A stretch of 64,000 bases of DNA from Chthoniobacterales bacterium (GTDB lineage Bacteria > Verrucomicrobiota > Verrucomicrobiia > Chthoniobacterales > UBA10450). The stretch's first letter is position 1, and the number at the start of each line of letters is the position of its first letter. The position numbers and the translations under genes were made by a program. Shown here one piece after another: positions 22,123 to 28,594 of the stretch. Below the pieces are notes generated by a model that was not told the origin of the DNA, ran no database searches, and worked only from the letters and a program-made list of their open reading frames with translations. The stretch covers positions 1-64,000 of the forward strand of contig JAICUQ010000004.1 in NCBI GenBank assembly GCA_025935755.1, read 5' to 3'.

Positions 22123-22893
22123 GTGCTCCCCGCCGACAACGAGTTAACCGAAGCAGCCAGTGTCGGCGTATCCAGGGGCCACGGTGGTGTTGGTTTTGCC
22201 ACGACGCACTGGAGTCTCGTGCTGGAGGCACAAGGAGAATCTCCACAGGCGGACAAAGCGCTCGAGAAACTTTGCCGCACCTACTGGTGGCCCGTTTACA
22301 GCTTCATCATCCGGCAAGGCGCCGGCCCAGAAGAGGCAAAAGATCTTACCCAAAGTTTCTTTGCGCTTCTGTTCGAAAGAAGAGATCTGGAATCTGTTCG
22401 CCGTGAAAAAGGGCGGCTGCGATCATTCTTCTTTGCTTCAATCAAACACTTCCTGGCTAAGGAACGGAGGTACGCGGCGGCGGCCAAACGCGGAGATGGC
22501 CGGCCGCTCATACCATTGGATGAATTGCTCGAGCGTAAACATTACGATCCTGAGGCGGCGGCCGCATTGAGCCCCGATCAAATCTTCGAGCGTCGCTGGG
22601 CGCTGACGGTTCTCGAGCAAGCTCTCACGCGATTGGAAGCTGAGTATCGCGCTTTGGACAAAGCGCGATTGTTTGAGCAATTGAAAAAACAGCTCACAGA
22701 CGAAGCCGACCGACCTTCCCAAGGCGATATCGCGCGTGAATTGGGCATGAGCGAGAACGCAGTGAACCAAGCTTTTTATCGGTTGCGCCAGCGCTACCGG
22801 GAATTGTTGCATGAGGAGATCGCCCACACCGTCGTCGCTCCCGACGACACCGAAGATGAGCTGCGCCATTTAATTGCCGCGTTGCGTGGGTAA
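22123..22893 (+). CDS. ECF-type sigma-70 family RNA polymerase sigma factor
   Basis: 256 residues, longer than classical ECF factors and of the type found in Planctomycetes and Verrucomicrobia beside protein kinases. Region 2 reads YWWPVYSFIIRQGAGPEEAKDLTQSFFALLFE. The linker is long. Region 4 ends SQGDIARELGMSENAVNQAFYRLRQRYRELLHEEI, a clear helix-turn-helix for -35 recognition. The start is GTG. The kinase gene follows after 75 bp. No anti-sigma gene is seen, so kinase-linked control is plausible. Candidate target promoters lie 3-6 kb downstream (25654, 27214, 28346). Confidence 0.92.
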   Translation: MLPADNELTEAASVGVSRGHGGVGFATTHWSLVLEAQGESPQADKALEKLCRTYWWPVYSFIIRQGAGPEEAKDLTQSFFALLFERRDLESVRREKGRLRSFFFASIKHFLAKERRYAAAAKRGDGRPLIPLDELLERKHYDPEAAAALSPDQIFERRWALTVLEQALTRLEAEYRALDKARLFEQLKKQLTDEADRPSQGDIARELGMSENAVNQAFYRLRQRYRELLHEEIAHTVVAPDDTEDELRHLIAALRG

Positions 22894-22968: not shown

Positions 22969-25497
22969 GTGAAATTGGTGTCCAAGCCCTGTCCTAGATG
23001 CGGCGCGGAATTGTATGTCGACGCGCCACAGGAATTTTGCAGTGCGTGTTTGTTAGAAACTGGTTTGTTCGCGGCTGGACCTGTAGCTGCGGACACCGAT
23101 GGTGCCGAAGCGCCAACCGCTAACAGCGGGGGACATCCTCGCAAAACCGACTTTGGCGACTACGAACTCCTGGAAAAATTAGGGAGCGGCGGACAAGGCC
23201 TTGTTTATCGAGCGCGGCAGAAGAGCCTCGATCGCACGGTCGCACTGAAGATCGTCGCGCTCGGTCAGTTCGCTACCAAACGGCATTTGCAACGCTTTCA
23301 TCTGGAAGCGCAAGCGGCGGCCAGGCTCGATCACCCCGGCATCGTTCCTATTTATGAAATCGGTGAGCGCGATGGTTCCTGCTATTTCAGCATGAAGCTG
23401 ATCGAGGGCGGTCCTCTCGACGAAATAGCTAAGCACCAGCCGATATCGCCTCGGCGCGCAGCCGAACTCATTGCGAAAGTGGCGCGCATTGTCCAGTTCG
23501 CGAACGAACACGGGATTCTGCACCGCGACATTAAGCCCGGGAACATCCTCGTTGATGGCAAAGGCGAACCGCATCTCACCGATTTCGGATTGGCCCGCCT
23601 GCTGGAAGCTGAAAGCACTGTCACGCGCACCATGGAGGTAATGGGCACACCCAGTTACATGGCGCCGGAACAGGCTGGAGGAAACAACGCCACCATCACG
23701 TGCGCCACCGATGTGTACGGGCTCGGCGCGGTCTTTTACCAATTGCTTACTGGCCATCCGCCGTTCGCTGGCGAAACCACCTATGAAACGGTTCGCCTGG
23801 TCTTGGAAGAAGAACCTCGGCAACCGAGATTGTGGAATCCGAAGATCGACCGGGATCTGGCAACCATCTGTCTTAAGTGTCTGGAAAAAGATCCGGGGCG
23901 TCGTTACGACTCCGCTCTCGCGTTGGCGGAGGATCTTGAACGCTGGCTGAAGCACGAACCTATTCGCGCGCGCTCTGCCGGAATTTTTGGGCGCAGCCAA
24001 AAATGGGTACGACGAAATCCAATGGCTGCGCTGCTCTTCGCATTGTCATTCGCATTTGTTGCAACGCTGAGTGTCACGATTTGGAAGAACGAATCAGCCC
24101 GGCCGCCAACAGGAGCGGGAGTGGCGGTACTGCCCTTTGTGAACATGAGCGCCGACAAAGAGAACGAGTATCTGAGCGACGGAATCACGGAGGATTTATG
24201 CGCCGCGCTGTCGCAGGTCAAAGGGCTGCGCGTCCCTGCTCGCACTTCCTCGTTCGCATTCAAAGGCAAGACCGAAAATATACGGAAGGTCGGCAAAGAA
24301 CTAAACGTGCCGACAGTGCTCGAAGGCAGCGTGAGCAGAGCGGGCAATAAACTTCGCGTCACCACGCAACTCATCAACGTAGCCGACGGTTTTCATCTCT
24401 GGGCGGCAACTTATGACCGTGAGATGACGGACATACTCGCTGTTCGCAGCGACATTTCTCAGCGCGTCGTTGACGCGCTAAAGCTTCAGCTGGGCGTCGA
24501 AGAGAAACAGCGCCTGGCCAGGAATCCGACGGAAAACCATCAGGCTTATGAGCTGTATCTGCTGGGTCGCTTTGAGCTAAGCAAGCTTACAGAGCAAAGC
24601 GCCCACAATAGCATCCAGTTTTTCCAGCAGGCGATTGTACTCGACCCCGAGTTTGCGCTGGCGCACGCCGGTCTGGCTGAGGCGTATCATTTAATTGGTT
24701 ACTGGAGCTACGTTCCGCCCAAAGAGGCTTTTCCCGAAGCGAAGGAAGCCGCTCAGAAAGCATTGGCGCTCGATGCCGAGCTGGCCGAAGCGCATGCCAC
24801 CCTCGGCTACGTTGAATTTCAATACGAATGGAAATTTAAGGAAGCTGAGGCCGAATTCAGAAGGGCCGTTGCGCTCAACCCGAATTCTGTAACTGCGCGG
24901 CTCAATCTCTGGGAGTATCTGCTTGACTTGGGCCGGACCCAGGAAGCGCATGAGGAACTGGAACGAGCCAGAGAAGTGGATCCGCTCTCCTACCGGGTCA
25001 ACTTCGGTTTCATCTGGCAGTACATAACAGAGGGCGATCTGGATCGTGCATCACAGCAGGCTGAGAAGACCATCGCCATCGATCCGAAAAATCCATTGGG
25101 CTATGACCTCCTCACCGCAATTCCGTACATCAAAAAGATGCCCGCTGAATATTTTGCCGCTGCGGAAAAGAGGGACATGCTGGAAGGATCATTCAGCGCG
25201 GAAGAACTGGGCGAGCTGCGAAAAGCGTACGACACTGGCGGGATACCAGCGTATTCGCGAAAGAGAAACGAGTTCTGCCAAAAGCGCATCGCCCAGGGAA
25301 AATATGAATCGCCATTGCGCATTGCGATCGACTATGCCGTGGGCGGCTTCGACTCGGAAGCGCTCGATTGGCTTGAAAAAGCAGTTGAAGAGCGCACTCC
25401 GTGGCTGCCGGAACTGAAAATAGATCTCGCCTGGGACAGGCTCCGATCGCAGCCTCGCTTCATTGCAATCTTGAAAAAAATAGGCTTGGAAAAATAA
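22969..25497 (+). CDS. membrane Ser/Thr protein kinase with zinc ribbon, TolB-like domain and TPRs
   Basis: 842 residues. The order is as follows. A zinc ribbon CPRCG...CSACL (C8, C11, C24, C27). A Hanks kinase (about 65-335) with LGSGGQGLVYRA, VALKIV, LHRDIKPGNILV at 184, DFGLAR at 205 and MAPEQA at 231, all intact. One membrane helix (about 351-372). A periplasmic FlgO/TolB-like nucleotide-cyclase-associated domain (VAVLPFVNMSADKENEYLSDGI, about 385-505). Tetratricopeptide repeats to the end. It follows the sigma factor in one transcriptional unit. An envelope signal sensed by the TPR part may alter sigma activity; this link is inferred from context. Confidence 0.93.
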   Translation: MKLVSKPCPRCGAELYVDAPQEFCSACLLETGLFAAGPVAADTDGAEAPTANSGGHPRKTDFGDYELLEKLGSGGQGLVYRARQKSLDRTVALKIVALGQFATKRHLQRFHLEAQAAARLDHPGIVPIYEIGERDGSCYFSMKLIEGGPLDEIAKHQPISPRRAAELIAKVARIVQFANEHGILHRDIKPGNILVDGKGEPHLTDFGLARLLEAESTVTRTMEVMGTPSYMAPEQAGGNNATITCATDVYGLGAVFYQLLTGHPPFAGETTYETVRLVLEEEPRQPRLWNPKIDRDLATICLKCLEKDPGRRYDSALALAEDLERWLKHEPIRARSAGIFGRSQKWVRRNPMAALLFALSFAFVATLSVTIWKNESARPPTGAGVAVLPFVNMSADKENEYLSDGITEDLCAALSQVKGLRVPARTSSFAFKGKTENIRKVGKELNVPTVLEGSVSRAGNKLRVTTQLINVADGFHLWAATYDREMTDILAVRSDISQRVVDALKLQLGVEEKQRLARNPTENHQAYELYLLGRFELSKLTEQSAHNSIQFFQQAIVLDPEFALAHAGLAEAYHLIGYWSYVPPKEAFPEAKEAAQKALALDAELAEAHATLGYVEFQYEWKFKEAEAEFRRAVALNPNSVTARLNLWEYLLDLGRTQEAHEELERAREVDPLSYRVNFGFIWQYITEGDLDRASQQAEKTIAIDPKNPLGYDLLTAIPYIKKMPAEYFAAAEKRDMLEGSFSAEELGELRKAYDTGGIPAYSRKRNEFCQKRIAQGKYESPLRIAIDYAVGGFDSEALDWLEKAVEERTPWLPELKIDLAWDRLRSQPRFIAILKKIGLEK

Positions 25498-25498
25498 C

Positions 25499-25573
25499 AA
25501 GTACGAATCAACACGAATAGACACTAATCCGAGCTGGATTGATTCGTGCTTATTCGTGTCGATTAGTGGTTAG
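25499..25573. repeat. imperfect inverted repeat after the kinase gene
   Basis: Directly after the stop, repeated words such as ACACGAATAGACACTAATC and ATTCGTGTCGATTAGTGG occur in opposite orientations. They can fold into a long imperfect stem. It may serve as a transcription end for the sigma-kinase unit, but there is no T-run. Confidence 0.45.
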
Positions 25574-25653: not shown

Positions 25654-25708
25654 TTCCCTGTAAGATTCGGCTGCATTCCGGTCTTGTACACAGGTGAAGG
25701 CGAGAAGT
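25654..25708 (+). promoter_or_regulatory. conserved ECF-like promoter element, copy 1 (before peptide 1)
   Basis: GTAAG (25660-25664), then a 16-base spacer, then GTC (25681-25683) within TCCGGTCTTGTACA, followed by GTGAAGGCGAGAAG. The geometry matches ECF promoters (five-base -35, N16, GTC at -10). The element recurs twice downstream with near identity. It lies 59 bp before the peptide 1 start codon. Confidence 0.65.
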
Positions 25709-25742: not shown

Positions 25743-25892
25743 ATGAGAGACAAAACAAAGAAAACCAAGACACAGATGAAGTTCCGCGACCTCAAGCCAG
25801 CAAAGGACGCTAAAGGCGGAATCCCGCCGGATCCTTGCCGCCGAGGCCGCTCCGGCTTTTATGCGGGCAATCACAACGAAACGCTTCTCTAG
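25743..25892 (+). CDS. short basic peptide 1 with DLK-x2-KD-x-KGG core, 49 aa
   Basis: Translation: a Lys/Thr-rich start (MRDKTKKTKTQ), the core FRDLKPAKDAKGG, then a distinct tail PPDPCRRGRSGFYAG ending NHNETLL. Two other peptides nearby (25997, 28466) share the core but not the start or tail. The pattern of a conserved leader-like part with a GG motif and a variable tail recalls ribosomally made, processed peptides. No maturation enzyme or C39 transporter is present in the window, so that is only a hypothesis. A promoter-like element lies upstream. Confidence 0.7.
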   Translation: MRDKTKKTKTQMKFRDLKPAKDAKGGIPPDPCRRGRSGFYAGNHNETLL

Positions 25893-25996
25893 GATGCTAA
25901 CTAGTCCGCTAACGAGGGTTCCAAGCAGAAATGGATCAGAAGAAACAGTGATATGACGAGGAGTACTCAATCAAAATTGAACCAACAGAAACAACT

Positions 25997-26179
25997 ATGA
26001 AAAAAATCAATCAAAACAATGGAACTAAGAAACTCACAAGCCCCGCTAACAACGGCAAGCCGACGATGCCGTTGCACGACTTGAAGACGCGCAAAGATCC
26101 GCGCGGCGGCGTGGGATTGAAACGGCGAGAGCAGGACGGCTTGATCTGCACCAACCACAACGAGCTCTTCGTTGAGTGA
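25997..26179 (+). CDS. short basic peptide 2 with DLK-x2-KD-x-RGG core, 60 aa
   Basis: The N-terminus is Asn/Lys-rich (MKKINQNNGTKK), the core is LHDLKTRKDPRGG, and the tail LKRREQDGLICTNHNELFVE shares NHNE with peptide 1. It has no promoter-like element of its own and probably lies on the peptide 1 transcript. Its stop codon overlaps the GTG of the TPR gene (GTGA, 26176-26179), so the two are translationally coupled. This favours a true gene and a functional link with the TPR protein. Confidence 0.72.
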   Translation: MKKINQNNGTKKLTSPANNGKPTMPLHDLKTRKDPRGGVGLKRREQDGLICTNHNELFVE

Positions 26180-27144
26180 CGGCGGGTGGCGCTAAACGCG
26201 CGCGGCAAACGTATTTGCGAGCGCAAGGCGTAGAGGCGGCGGGAAACTATTCTGAGGCGGGGCGCATTTACAAGGCGTTGATTTGCGGGCTGCGCCTTAC
26301 TCCGCCCCAGGAGCTGCATGTCGATGTTTATCGCAGTCTCGCCGACTTGTACCGAATTCTAGGCCGTTACCGCGAATCGGACGCTGCTTTTGCCGCCGCA
26401 TTCATGATCGCGGACAAAGTTTACACCAAGGATGCGATCGAACACTGGCGGTTGCTCAACGGACGCGCCATTCTCTACAAATATTCCGGCCACTTCGCTG
26501 GTGGCGCGCGTCTGTATCGGACCGCGCTCAAAATCCTGACCAGCGCAAACGGCTCGCACTACTCCGAGATCGCTACGATTTATCATAACCTTGGCGGACT
26601 CGAGCACGCTCGCGGCCGATATGCGATCGGTGAACAGTTTGCACGCAAGGGAATCACGATCCGCCGGCGCGCCCTCGGCGCGGATCATCCCGCCGTGGTC
26701 GCCGATGGAGCAGCGCTTGCTGCGTTGCTGCTCGCGCAGAAAAAGTTTGGCGAGGCGGAACTACTTCTTCGGCGTGCGCTGCGAATCTTTCGCCGGGCGT
26801 CCCAGCCGGAGAACTACGATGTGGCAATCGCACTGAGCAATCTCGGTTCGCTGGAACAGGCGCGCGGAAATTTTACCGCAGCGCTTCGTTACCATAAAGA
26901 AGCGCTCCGGATTAAGGAAAAACTCTTCGGGCCGCATCATGTCGATATCGCGGTGACACTGAACAACATCGCGGTGGTCTACCGGGAACAGCAACGCTTG
27001 GCAGAAGCGCTGCCGCTGTTTTCCCGCGCGTTGTCGATCTTGCAAGCCAGCGTCTCTTCGCGACATCCCAATCTGATCAAGTGTCAAAAAAACTACGTGG
27101 CGCTTTTACAAGTGCCTTCTCGCTTACAGCAGGCGAAGGCTTGA
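26176..27144 (+). CDS. tetratricopeptide-repeat protein (kinesin-light-chain-like TPRs), 322 aa
   Basis: Almost the whole protein is TPRs of the 42-residue kinesin-light-chain type. Examples are ALSNLGSLEQARGNFTAAL and ALRIKEKLFGPHHVDIAVTL, with the recurring HP/HH hinge. No signal peptide, membrane segment or catalytic domain. TPR scaffolds bind peptides or partner proteins, and the coupled upstream peptide is an obvious candidate ligand (inference). The start is the GTG overlapping the peptide 2 stop. It sits downstream of the kinase, which also carries TPRs. Confidence 0.85.
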   Translation: MTAGGAKRARQTYLRAQGVEAAGNYSEAGRIYKALICGLRLTPPQELHVDVYRSLADLYRILGRYRESDAAFAAAFMIADKVYTKDAIEHWRLLNGRAILYKYSGHFAGGARLYRTALKILTSANGSHYSEIATIYHNLGGLEHARGRYAIGEQFARKGITIRRRALGADHPAVVADGAALAALLLAQKKFGEAELLLRRALRIFRRASQPENYDVAIALSNLGSLEQARGNFTAALRYHKEALRIKEKLFGPHHVDIAVTLNNIAVVYREQQRLAEALPLFSRALSILQASVSSRHPNLIKCQKNYVALLQVPSRLQQAKA

Positions 27145-27213
27145 GACTCTTCGGAATTGATCGCGACGCGACCTCAGCAAAGTAGGCAACGCTGCAACGC
27201 AGCAAAGTCACTT

Positions 27214-27263
27214 TCCTCGTAAGATTCGCCCGCATTCCGGTCTTGTACATGAGTGAAGGCCAC
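27214..27263 (+). promoter_or_regulatory. conserved ECF-like promoter element, copy 2 (before secreted protein)
   Basis: GTAAG (27220-27224), 16-base spacer, GTC (27241-27243) in TTCCGGTCTTGTACATGAG, then GTGAAGGCCA. ACTTTCC also precedes the GTAAG as in copy 1. It is 92 bp upstream of the 27335 start codon. Confidence 0.65.
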
Positions 27264-27334
27264 CCGACTTCGCGAGGCTACGACGGCCTAGGAAAGGACG
27301 GAAGGCCAACAAAAAGAAAAGGAGATTAAGAAAT

Positions 27335-28213
27335 ATGAACAAAACAAAGATTAACTTCAGTGGCCGTTCCGCGATTTTCTCGGGCACCGCGGGTGTTGGT
27401 CTGTTGATTCTCGCTCTCGGTTCAATCACCACATCCAGCATTCACGCGCTGCCAGCCGTCCAAGACGTCGCCGGCGACTGGTTCGGCTTCTTCAATGCGC
27501 CAGGCCTCCCGCCCGGTCCATGCCGACTGACCATCCAATTCCAGCAGAACCGCAGCTTTAGCGGTCCCCTTGATATAGAACTTCCGCCGGATCCGTGCAA
27601 CGTCATGATCAGCGGCGCAGTCTCGGCCAGCAACAACGTCAGCTTCACCGGCCATAACGACACCACCGGTTGCAGGGCCAACGCGCACGTCATGTTTAGC
27701 GATTTTGGGGACGGCGGCGCGCTCTTTGATGGCGACCTCAAGCTCACCCTCGGGGACGGCACCCAACCGAAAGGCAGCGTGGTCCAACTGCGCGCTTTCA
27801 TGCCAGACCCGAACATGCCGCCCCCGGACATGATCGGCGATTATCAAGGCAACGGCACCAGCGACGTTAACGGGCAACAAATCCCGATCATCATTCACAT
27901 TGCGCGGATTGTCTGCGATTGCATTGATCGGCCGCCGGCCACCGTCTTTGCCGCGAATCTCGGCATCAGCACAGCCATGTTCTCCGCCGGTTACGCGACG
28001 GTCAGTCCGCACGGCGAACAGACCACCCATGACAGCGAACCCGTCGTTGCGTATGAACTGCTCGTTATCGGGCAGGGCAATGACGCGAACGCGCGGATCA
28101 TGGGCGCGTTCCACGTCCACGCCGGCGTCAGTCCGTGCATTCGCGGGCAATTCCAAATTCGCAATCTCGACGGCACAGAAGACCACGGCCAGTTCGAGGC
28201 ATTCCAGCAGTAA
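27335..28213 (+). CDS. secreted beta-rich protein of unknown function, 292 aa
   Basis: The N-terminus (about 1-38) is a long signal peptide ending SSIHALPA. The mature part is Gly/Asp/Pro-rich with beta-strand spacing and cysteines in PGPCRLTIQF, PPDPCNVMI, TTGCRA, IVCDCIDRP and SPCIRGQF. Two similar halves may be present, each beginning GDWFGFF or GDYQGNG and ending in a GxF strand. I do not recognise the family. AGGAG lies 8 bases before the ATG. It has its own copy of the promoter-like element shared with the short peptides, so common control is likely. Confidence 0.8.
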   Translation: MNKTKINFSGRSAIFSGTAGVGLLILALGSITTSSIHALPAVQDVAGDWFGFFNAPGLPPGPCRLTIQFQQNRSFSGPLDIELPPDPCNVMISGAVSASNNVSFTGHNDTTGCRANAHVMFSDFGDGGALFDGDLKLTLGDGTQPKGSVVQLRAFMPDPNMPPPDMIGDYQGNGTSDVNGQQIPIIIHIARIVCDCIDRPPATVFAANLGISTAMFSAGYATVSPHGEQTTHDSEPVVAYELLVIGQGNDANARIMGAFHVHAGVSPCIRGQFQIRNLDGTEDHGQFEAFQQ

Positions 28214-28345
28214 TCACCTGCGTTATAACCATCACTGACCTCGACGAAGGGAAACGAAACATTTCTTCGACATTCATGCCGTCGTCCCCAAGAACATCGT
28301 CGGCAGCTTCGCCGAAATAGCCAACGATTCAAAGGGGGAGGCCAA

Positions 28346-28400
28346 TTGCCTGTAAGATTTCGCCGAATTCCGGTCTTGTACACCAGTGAAGGCCAGAAGT
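28346..28400 (+). promoter_or_regulatory. conserved ECF-like promoter element, copy 3 (before peptide 3)
   Basis: GTAAG (28352-28356), 16-base spacer, GTC (28373-28375) in TTCCGGTCTTGTACACCAG, then GTGAAGGCCAGAAG. It matches copy 1 in the downstream GAAG as well. It lies 91 bp before the peptide 3 start. Confidence 0.65.
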
Positions 28401-28465
28401 GATTGTGAGAGATCAAAGACGGCCAAAGTACAAAACAGATAAGCGATCAACAAGGAAGACAAACG

Positions 28466-28594
28466 ATGCAAAATAAACAGGACAATCGAAAGAGGACCAC
28501 GAAGAGGAGCAAAGTCCAACTCCGTGACCTGAAAACAAGAAAAGATCCGAAGGGTGGAATTATCATAATCAACAGCGGCCCCGGCCGTCCGTAG
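28466..28594 (+). CDS. short basic peptide 3 with DLK-x2-KD-x-KGG core, 42 aa
   Basis: Translation: MQNKQDNRKRTTKRSK, then VQLRDLKTRKDPKGG, then a short hydrophobic tail IIIINSGPGRP. The core LRDLKTRKDPKGG is nearly identical to that of peptide 2, yet the tail is unrelated. This supports a leader-plus-variable-tail family. A full copy of the promoter-like element lies upstream. An AAGGAAGAC tract precedes the ATG by about 9 bases. Confidence 0.7.
   Translation: MQNKQDNRKRTTKRSKVQLRDLKTRKDPKGGIIIINSGPGRP

What the first reader, a model, noticed from the sequence alone, without database searches (positions are those of the whole stretch)
25743..28594. Unannotated family of tiny peptides with DLK-x2-KD-x-(K/R)-GG core and variable tails
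Three ORFs of 49, 60 and 42 residues share a 13-residue core ending in GG. They have different basic N-termini and different tails (peptides 1 and 2 share NHNE). This looks like a leader and core precursor family, with GG as a possible cleavage site. No maturation or C39 export gene lies in the window, so the processing route, if any, is unknown. The peptides are too short for normal gene callers.
Basis: partly seen in the sequence, partly recalled or inferred. Interest (0 to 1): 0.82.

Follow-up and report, generated by a model that had tools for sequence, protein, structure and literature searches.

The report
Small export-leader peptides in soil Verrucomicrobiota
Three tiny genes in this soil bacterium belong to a previously unnamed family of small peptides that carry a shared "shipping tag" ending in Gly-Gly; the same genome encodes one matching cut-and-export machine, so they are probably secreted signals or specialised peptides of one of the commonest soil bacterial groups.

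Summary
The three ORFs share DLKxxKDx(K/R)GG, and a leader HMM built only from other genomes ranks them 1-3 of 1,531 frames in the window. The motif occurs 70 times in 41 of 83 family genomes, against 0 for the reversed pattern; invariant residues vary only at synonymous codon positions.

The missing exporter is elsewhere in the same genome (contig C228). There, and in about 20 relatives including another family, an operon encodes a PpiC/SurA-like protein, a cNMP+C39-peptidase+ABC exporter, HlyD, a sigma-54 activator, a constant GG peptide ("pepA") and one or more variable GG peptides ("pepB"). It is the genome's only convincing C39 exporter. Leader and exporter co-occur (39/41; both exceptions are truncated contigs).

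The window peptides are unlinked precursors under separate control: copies of a 55-nt ECF-type promoter precede peptide 1, a secreted-type ORF and peptide 3, beside an ECF sigma/Ser-Thr kinase pair. A relative has the same promoter next to the orthologous pair.

A third subtype (SDLTPKKDxxGG) lies beside a lanthipeptide-type lyase-kinase lacking its cyclase.

The leader departs from the canonical C39 consensus at -7 and -12, so cleavage is inferred. I file this as a new leader family on a known HetC/cyanobacterial-type export system.

The parts
25743..25892 (+). peptide 1 (49 aa), leader MRDKTKKTKTQMKFRDLKPAKDAKGG, tail IPPDPCRRGRSGFYAGNHNETLL
   Evidence: E=3.4e-8 with HMM from other genomes
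25997..26179 (+). peptide 2 (60 aa), core DLKTRKDPRGG; stop overlaps the GTG start of the TPR ORF (GTGA)
   Evidence: E=0.007
28466..28594 (+). peptide 3 (42 aa), core DLKTRKDPKGG
   Evidence: E=1.6e-5
25654..25708 (+). ECF-type promoter element copy 1 (TGTAAGATT...CCGGTCTTGTACA), upstream of peptide 1
27213..27267 (+). promoter element copy 2, upstream of secreted-type ORF 27335
28346..28400 (+). promoter element copy 3, upstream of peptide 3
22123..22893 (+). ECF-type sigma factor
   Evidence: TIGR02937 1.1e-13, above cutoff; Sigma70_r4_2; sequence; 80% identical partner in L204
22969..25497 (+). Ser/Thr protein kinase with TPR C-terminus, paired with the ECF sigma factor
   Evidence: PF00069 6.3e-50; 51% identical partner in L204
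26176..27144 (+). TPR protein, coupled to peptide 2 by start/stop overlap
   Evidence: TPR_12 1.6e-42
27335..28213 (+). 292-aa ORF with signal-peptide-like N-terminus (judged by eye), no Pfam/NCBIfam match, behind promoter copy 2
   Evidence: no homologue in the other 34 genomes of the genus

Best explanation
The three ORFs encode precursors of a lineage-specific family of exported small peptides. A basic N-terminus plus the motif [IVLF]-x-[VLF]-x-DLx(P/T)xKD(A/V/P)(K/R)GG acts as a leader. The leader is recognised, and probably cut after GG, by the cNMP-binding/C39-peptidase/ABC exporter encoded on contig C228 of the same genome, with its HlyD adaptor; the variable tail is released outside the cytoplasm. 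The window copies are not linked to the exporter. They are transcribed from ECF-type promoters read by the adjacent ECF sigma factor, which its partner Ser/Thr kinase probably controls, together with a secreted-type protein. Thus one exporter serves many scattered, separately regulated precursors. SHOWN: family, leader conservation, coding constraint, operon with the exporter, co-occurrence, intact C39 catalytic residues, promoter repeats beside the sigma/kinase pair in two species. INFERRED: recognition and cleavage at GG, export of the window peptides by the C228 exporter, promoter-sigma pairing, kinase control, activity of the tails.
For: Pattern: 70 hits in 41/83 family genomes, 0 reversed controls; 7 exact plus 7 near hits in the own genome. 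About 80 homologous peptides with a conserved leader and a variable tail. Operon PpiC-like, C39-ABC, HlyD, sigma-54 activator, pepA, pepB(n) in own contig C228 and relatives, including a second family (L208). C39 domain 1.5e-38 with two cNMP domains; aligns to PCAT1 and LahT with Cys/His/Asp kept. Only one convincing C39 protein in the genome. Co-occurrence 39/41, Fisher p = 7e-12 uncorrected for phylogeny, with both exceptions cut off by contig ends. pepA and pepB leaders share the D(-11) L(-10) P(-8) GG frame although their tails differ. Promoter element: three window copies, plus one in L204 beside the orthologous ECF/kinase pair. RpoN present.
Against: The canonical C39 leader requirement (hydrophobic -4, -7, -12; PMC6363468) is met only partly, at -4 (A/V/P); -7 is often Lys/Arg and -12 is usually Arg. 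The window peptides are not next to the exporter, and peptides 2 and 3 carry Thr instead of the near-invariant Pro at -8. No close orthologues of the window peptides' tails were found. The relative with the same promoter has a different small ORF there. Tails are Gly/Thr/Ser/His-rich and often repetitive, unlike typical bacteriocins.
Confidence: 0.72

Rival explanations
1. The peptides are RiPP precursors whose tails are enzymatically modified (Ser/Thr phosphorylation and elimination by a RamC/LanKC-type lyase-kinase) before export; the window peptides use such an enzyme in trans.
For: Subtype SDLTPKKDxxGG lies beside an orthologous lyase-kinase in 4 of 4 loci that hold that enzyme group, including own contig C161 (RamC_N 1.5e-41 plus kinase). 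Kinase catalytic residues are present. The operon protein resembles TIGR04500, found in characterised RiPP clusters (PMC13097080).
Against: No modification gene beside pepA/pepB operons or in the window. RamC_N occurs in only 19 of 83 family genomes, pepB in 41. The enzyme lacks a LanC cyclase, and pepB tails lack Cys.
Confidence: 0.15
2. The DLKxxKDxxGG region is a docking or RNA/DNA-binding motif of small basic intracellular proteins; GG is not cut and the peptides are not exported (for example regulators or chaperone partners of the exporter operon).
For: The leader is about 37% Lys+Arg. It lacks canonical -7 and -12 hydrophobics. Some members are far from any exporter.
Against: Tails are hypervariable and often repetitive while the leader is conserved, as expected of a removable leader. 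Consistent placement behind a C39 exporter, and near-absence from genomes without it.
Confidence: 0.1
3. Chance ORFs or a repeated DNA element.
For: Short ORFs are common; some DNA repetition exists nearby.
Against: Shuffle, reversed-pattern and HMM tests, plus synonymous substitution in invariant residues.
Confidence: 0.01

Closest known systems
Cyanobacterial double-glycine precursor clusters, groups I, II and VI (Wang et al. 2011, PMC3140520)
   Same: SurA/PpiC-type protein, HlyD and 'long type' C39-ABC exporter with an N-terminal CAP_ED domain; several small GG precursors per cluster.
   Different: Leader family is neither NHLP nor N11P and does not fit the quoted consensus M(R/K)ELX3E(I/L)X2(I/V)XG(G/A); a sigma-54 activator and a constant pepA are added; found in Verrucomicrobiota; many precursors unlinked.
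HetC of Nostoc PCC 7120 (PMC10986499)
   Same: cNMP domain + C39 peptidase + ABC exporter architecture.
   Different: The HetC substrate is unknown and no HlyD gene is nearby; here candidate substrates and HlyD sit in the operon, and two cNMP domain stretches are present.
PCAT1 / LahT150 (PDB 4RY2, 6MPZ; PMC6363468)
   Same: C39 domain aligned, catalytic Cys/His/Asp conserved; GG cleavage of short leaders with diverse tails by one protease.
   Different: Leader of this family lacks the hydrophobic -7 and -12 positions.
Class III/IV lanthionine synthetases (LanKC/LanL)
   Same: RamC_N lyase + kinase domains next to the SDLTPKKDxxGG subtype.
   Different: No LanC cyclase domain; not present by the window peptides.
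Phospho-regulated ECF sigma factors (ECF43 and relatives; PMC8999054, PMC13147305)
   Same: ECF sigma gene adjacent to a Ser/Thr kinase gene; DAED motif altered (EAKD by eye).
   Different: Group assignment and phosphorylation not tested; targets here include GG peptides.

Membership tests
Double-glycine (C39/PCAT) precursor peptides | Short precursor with a conserved leader ending GG/GA/GS and a variable tail | tested here: met
   variants ending GA and GS in the own genome
Double-glycine (C39/PCAT) precursor peptides | Genetic linkage to a C39-ABC exporter with intact catalytic residues | tested here: met
   met for family members on own contig C228 and in relatives; not for the window copies themselves
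Double-glycine (C39/PCAT) precursor peptides | Hydrophobic residues at -4, -7 and -12 | tested here: not met
   -4 A/V mostly; -7 often K/R; -12 mostly R; requirement from PMC6363468
Double-glycine (C39/PCAT) precursor peptides | Cleavage after GG during export | not testable with these tools
   needs biochemistry
NHLP / N11P and other named precursor families | Match to a curated precursor family model | tested here: not met
   no NCBIfam match and no meaningful Pfam match to the peptides (only one sub-threshold chance-level hit)
Cyanobacterial group I/II/VI export clusters | SurA/PpiC-type protein + cNMP-C39-ABC + HlyD | tested here: met
   domain content; TIGR04500 match to the PpiC-like protein is below its cutoff (49.8 vs 180 bits)
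Lanthipeptides class III/IV (SDLTPKKD subtype only) | Lyase-kinase-cyclase synthetase next to the precursor | tested here: not met
   RamC_N and kinase present but no cyclase domain in the ~480-aa protein
Kinase-controlled ECF sigma modules | ECF sigma adjacent to a Ser/Thr kinase, sharing a promoter signature at nearby targets | tested here: met
Kinase-controlled ECF sigma modules | Sigma factor phosphorylated and activated by the kinase | not testable with these tools
   known from EcfP/PknT (PMC8999054); here inference only

The most novel reading that the evidence does not exclude
Chthoniobacterales/Udaeobacter use one HetC-type exporter as a shared outlet for a modular peptide repertoire: a constant peptide (pepA, probably the signal of the system), hypervariable repetitive peptides (pepB), lyase-kinase-modified peptides (SDLT type) and ECF/kinase-induced peptides such as those in the window, all carrying one new non-canonical leader. 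This would be a peptide communication or surface-interaction system unlike known bacteriocin clusters.
Probability: 0.4. Interest if true: 0.78.

Novelty: new variant of a known kind. Interest (0 to 1): 0.62.

Why it matters
Udaeobacter-type Verrucomicrobiota are among the most abundant soil bacteria (PMC7343977), yet no secreted peptide system of this kind turned up in the literature searched here. This finding gives a leader signature that finds dozens of unnoticed precursors, names the exporter, and offers candidate substrates for the HetC-type exporter architecture, whose substrate in Nostoc is explicitly unknown (PMC10986499). It also shows precursors scattered around a genome under ECF/kinase and probably sigma-54 control while sharing one exporter, which can be tested directly with synthetic peptides.

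Tried and rejected
Rfam scan of the repeated upstream element: no family, so it is read as a promoter, not a known RNA. Sigma-54 sites directly upstream of pepB: no better than shuffles; the conserved site TGGCAYGNATNNTGNTAA lies upstream of pepA instead and departs from the -12 GC consensus. The ECF promoter elsewhere in the own genome: only the three window sites. Homologues of ORF 27335 in the genus: none. Enrichment of kinases near peptides: own genome has 23 kinases; true Ser/Thr kinases lie within 4 kb of 2 of about 10 peptide loci, not clearly more than chance, so dropped as an argument. Other RamC_N enzymes in the family (about 40% identical) do not sit with this leader. Literature search for the leader strings: nothing.

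Full report
OBSERVATION. The three ORFs are present with the stated sequences. They share DLKxxKDx(K/R)GG, which is 11 residues; peptides 1 and 2 share NHNE. The back-translated core occurs three times in the window and never by chance at that level (0.05 expected with 2 mismatches allowed). Codons at the shared residues differ only synonymously between the three copies (CTC/TTG/CTG for Leu, AAG/AAA for Lys, GAC/GAT for Asp, GGN for Gly). Over 56 distinct cores from many genomes the third codon position is free and the second is fixed at every invariant residue. A leader HMM built without any sequence from this genome ranks the three ORFs first, second and third of 1,531 window frames. Peptides have no NCBIfam match and no meaningful Pfam match.

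FAMILY. The pattern has 70 matches in 41 of 83 genomes of the family and none with the reversed control. It is confined to the order: 4 of 388 genomes sampled across the phylum, and 55 stretches among about 85,000 species, almost all Verrucomicrobia labelled Chthoniobacterales, Spartobacteria or Udaeobacter. One hit labelled Acidobacteria (L173) is nearly identical to a Udaeobacter-type peptide and may be mis-binned. The own genome holds 7 exact and 7 near matches. Alignment of 56 leaders gives a Lys-rich start, then I/V(-15), V(-13), R(-12), D(-11), L(-10), K(-9), P(-8), x(-7), K(-6), D(-5), A/V(-4), K(-3), G, G. D, L, K, K, D, G and G were required by the search pattern; P(-8), A(-4), K(-3), V(-13) and I/V(-15) were not. 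Tails have a median of 23 residues, are Gly/Thr/Ser/His/Gln-rich, contain no Cys in 69 cases outside the own genome, and 25 of 69 contain short tandem repeats. The tails of the window peptides are different in character (peptide 1 IPPDPCRRGRSGFYAGNHNETLL).

EXPORTER. In own contig C228 and in about 20 other loci the peptides lie directly downstream of a fixed gene order: a PpiC/SurA-like protein (weakly TIGR04500), an exporter of about 1,040 aa with cNMP-binding, C39 peptidase, ABC membrane and ATPase domains, HlyD, and a sigma-54 activator. A first, constant small ORF follows (pepA: KLIRLDDLIPKxDVxGG-xQLLFGATDT), then one to five variable pepB ORFs. The order also holds in a genome of another family, L208. 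The C39 domain aligns with PCAT1 and LahT with the catalytic Cys, His and Asp in place, and the Cys and His motifs recur in 24 of 25 homologues each (several 'None' entries reflect a strict search string). It is the only convincing C39 domain in the genome; a second hit is a 23-bit match in a 226-aa frame. PpiC-like protein and peptides co-occur: 39 of 41 peptide-bearing genomes against 10 of 42 others (uncorrected for phylogeny). Both exceptions (G014, G059) have the peptides on contigs cut off inside the sigma-54 activator gene (L209, L210).

REGULATION. Upstream of pepA a site TGGCAYGNATNNTGNTAA sits at nearly constant distance in about 33 of 38 loci. With the sigma-54 activator in the operon and RpoN in the genome it is a likely sigma-54 promoter, although the -12 element is not canonical. 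The window peptides have a different signal: a 55-nt element containing TGTAAGATT and CCGGTCTTGTACA upstream of peptide 1, ORF 27335 and peptide 3. It occurs at no other place in this genome. In the rest of the genus it occurs once, in L204, directly downstream of the orthologous ECF sigma (80% identical over 153 residues) and kinase (51%). The simplest reading is a local regulon of the ECF sigma at 22123-22893, with the kinase at 22969-25497 as its probable controller, as in ECF43-type systems (PMC8999054). Peptide 2 has no element of its own and overlaps the start of the TPR gene, so peptide 1, peptide 2 and the TPR protein are probably one transcript.

MODIFICATION. A subtype with KLSDLTPKKDxxGG (own contig C161, L192, L193, L265) lies beside an orthologous enzyme of about 480 aa with a RamC_N lyase domain and a kinase domain but no LanC cyclase. 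This makes it likely that some tails with this leader are dehydrated at Ser/Thr. Nothing of the kind is linked to the window peptides.

MECHANISM AND LIMITS. I take the leader as the shared recognition element of the C228 exporter and GG as its cut site. The main tension is that LahT150 requires hydrophobic -4, -7 and -12 (PMC6363468), while here -7 is often charged and -12 is Arg. The alternative hydrophobic register -15, -13, -10, -4 is conserved in both pepA and pepB, which suggests a changed docking mode, but this is inference. What the tails do is unknown; the conserved pepA tail suggests a signal, the variable pepB tails suggest interaction with changing partners.

COMPARISON. The export operon corresponds to the cyanobacterial clusters of groups I, II and VI (PMC3140520) and the exporter to HetC, whose substrate is unknown (PMC10986499). 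The leader family, the sigma-54/pepA/pepB arrangement, the ECF-controlled unlinked members and the lyase-kinase subtype were not found described in the papers searched. I rate it a new variant of a known kind.

Noticed in passing
G000 contig C161 (L080:6955-8452, -); L192, L193, L265: Two-domain RamC_N lyase + kinase without LanC cyclase beside SDLTPKKDxxGG peptides; a cyclase-less lanthipeptide-type enzyme in Verrucomicrobiota.
   Followed up: partly
L261:3982-4580 and L264:3400-4200: A second group of RamC_N lyase-kinases (about 40% identical) lies near other small conserved ORFs of about 90-107 aa (for example ...GLGIPSSDWAVMRKCTDSGSLLAPTAGE), possibly a different precursor family.
   Followed up: no
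L068, L069, L092, L093, L173 and others: A very conserved orphan member MKTQIPNINVVRSAWRRVKKDIKDAIIRDLKPVKDVKGG... with a conserved upstream region, not linked to the exporter, present in many Udaeobacter-type genomes.
   Followed up: no
L173 (QHZR01000089.1): MAG labelled Acidobacteria gp1 carries a peptide nearly identical to Udaeobacter-type ones; probably mis-binned contig or recent transfer.
   Followed up: no
L076:9822-10897 (own contig C160): Another leader peptide (tail LPPGPCGPGRQ...) directly downstream of a surface-protein-like gene and near a second ECF/kinase pair; its tail, that of window peptide 1 and ORF 27335 share PPxPC.
   Followed up: partly
L156:5772: Leader KSAAKDLKPKKDAKGG followed by LLLPAVQKIREAAAR in a pond Verrucomicrobiales genome, resembling planctomycete prepilin-like segments.
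   Followed up: no
window 25503-25567: 27-nt inverted repeat (81% complementary) just after the kinase gene and before the first promoter copy, possibly a terminator.
   Followed up: no
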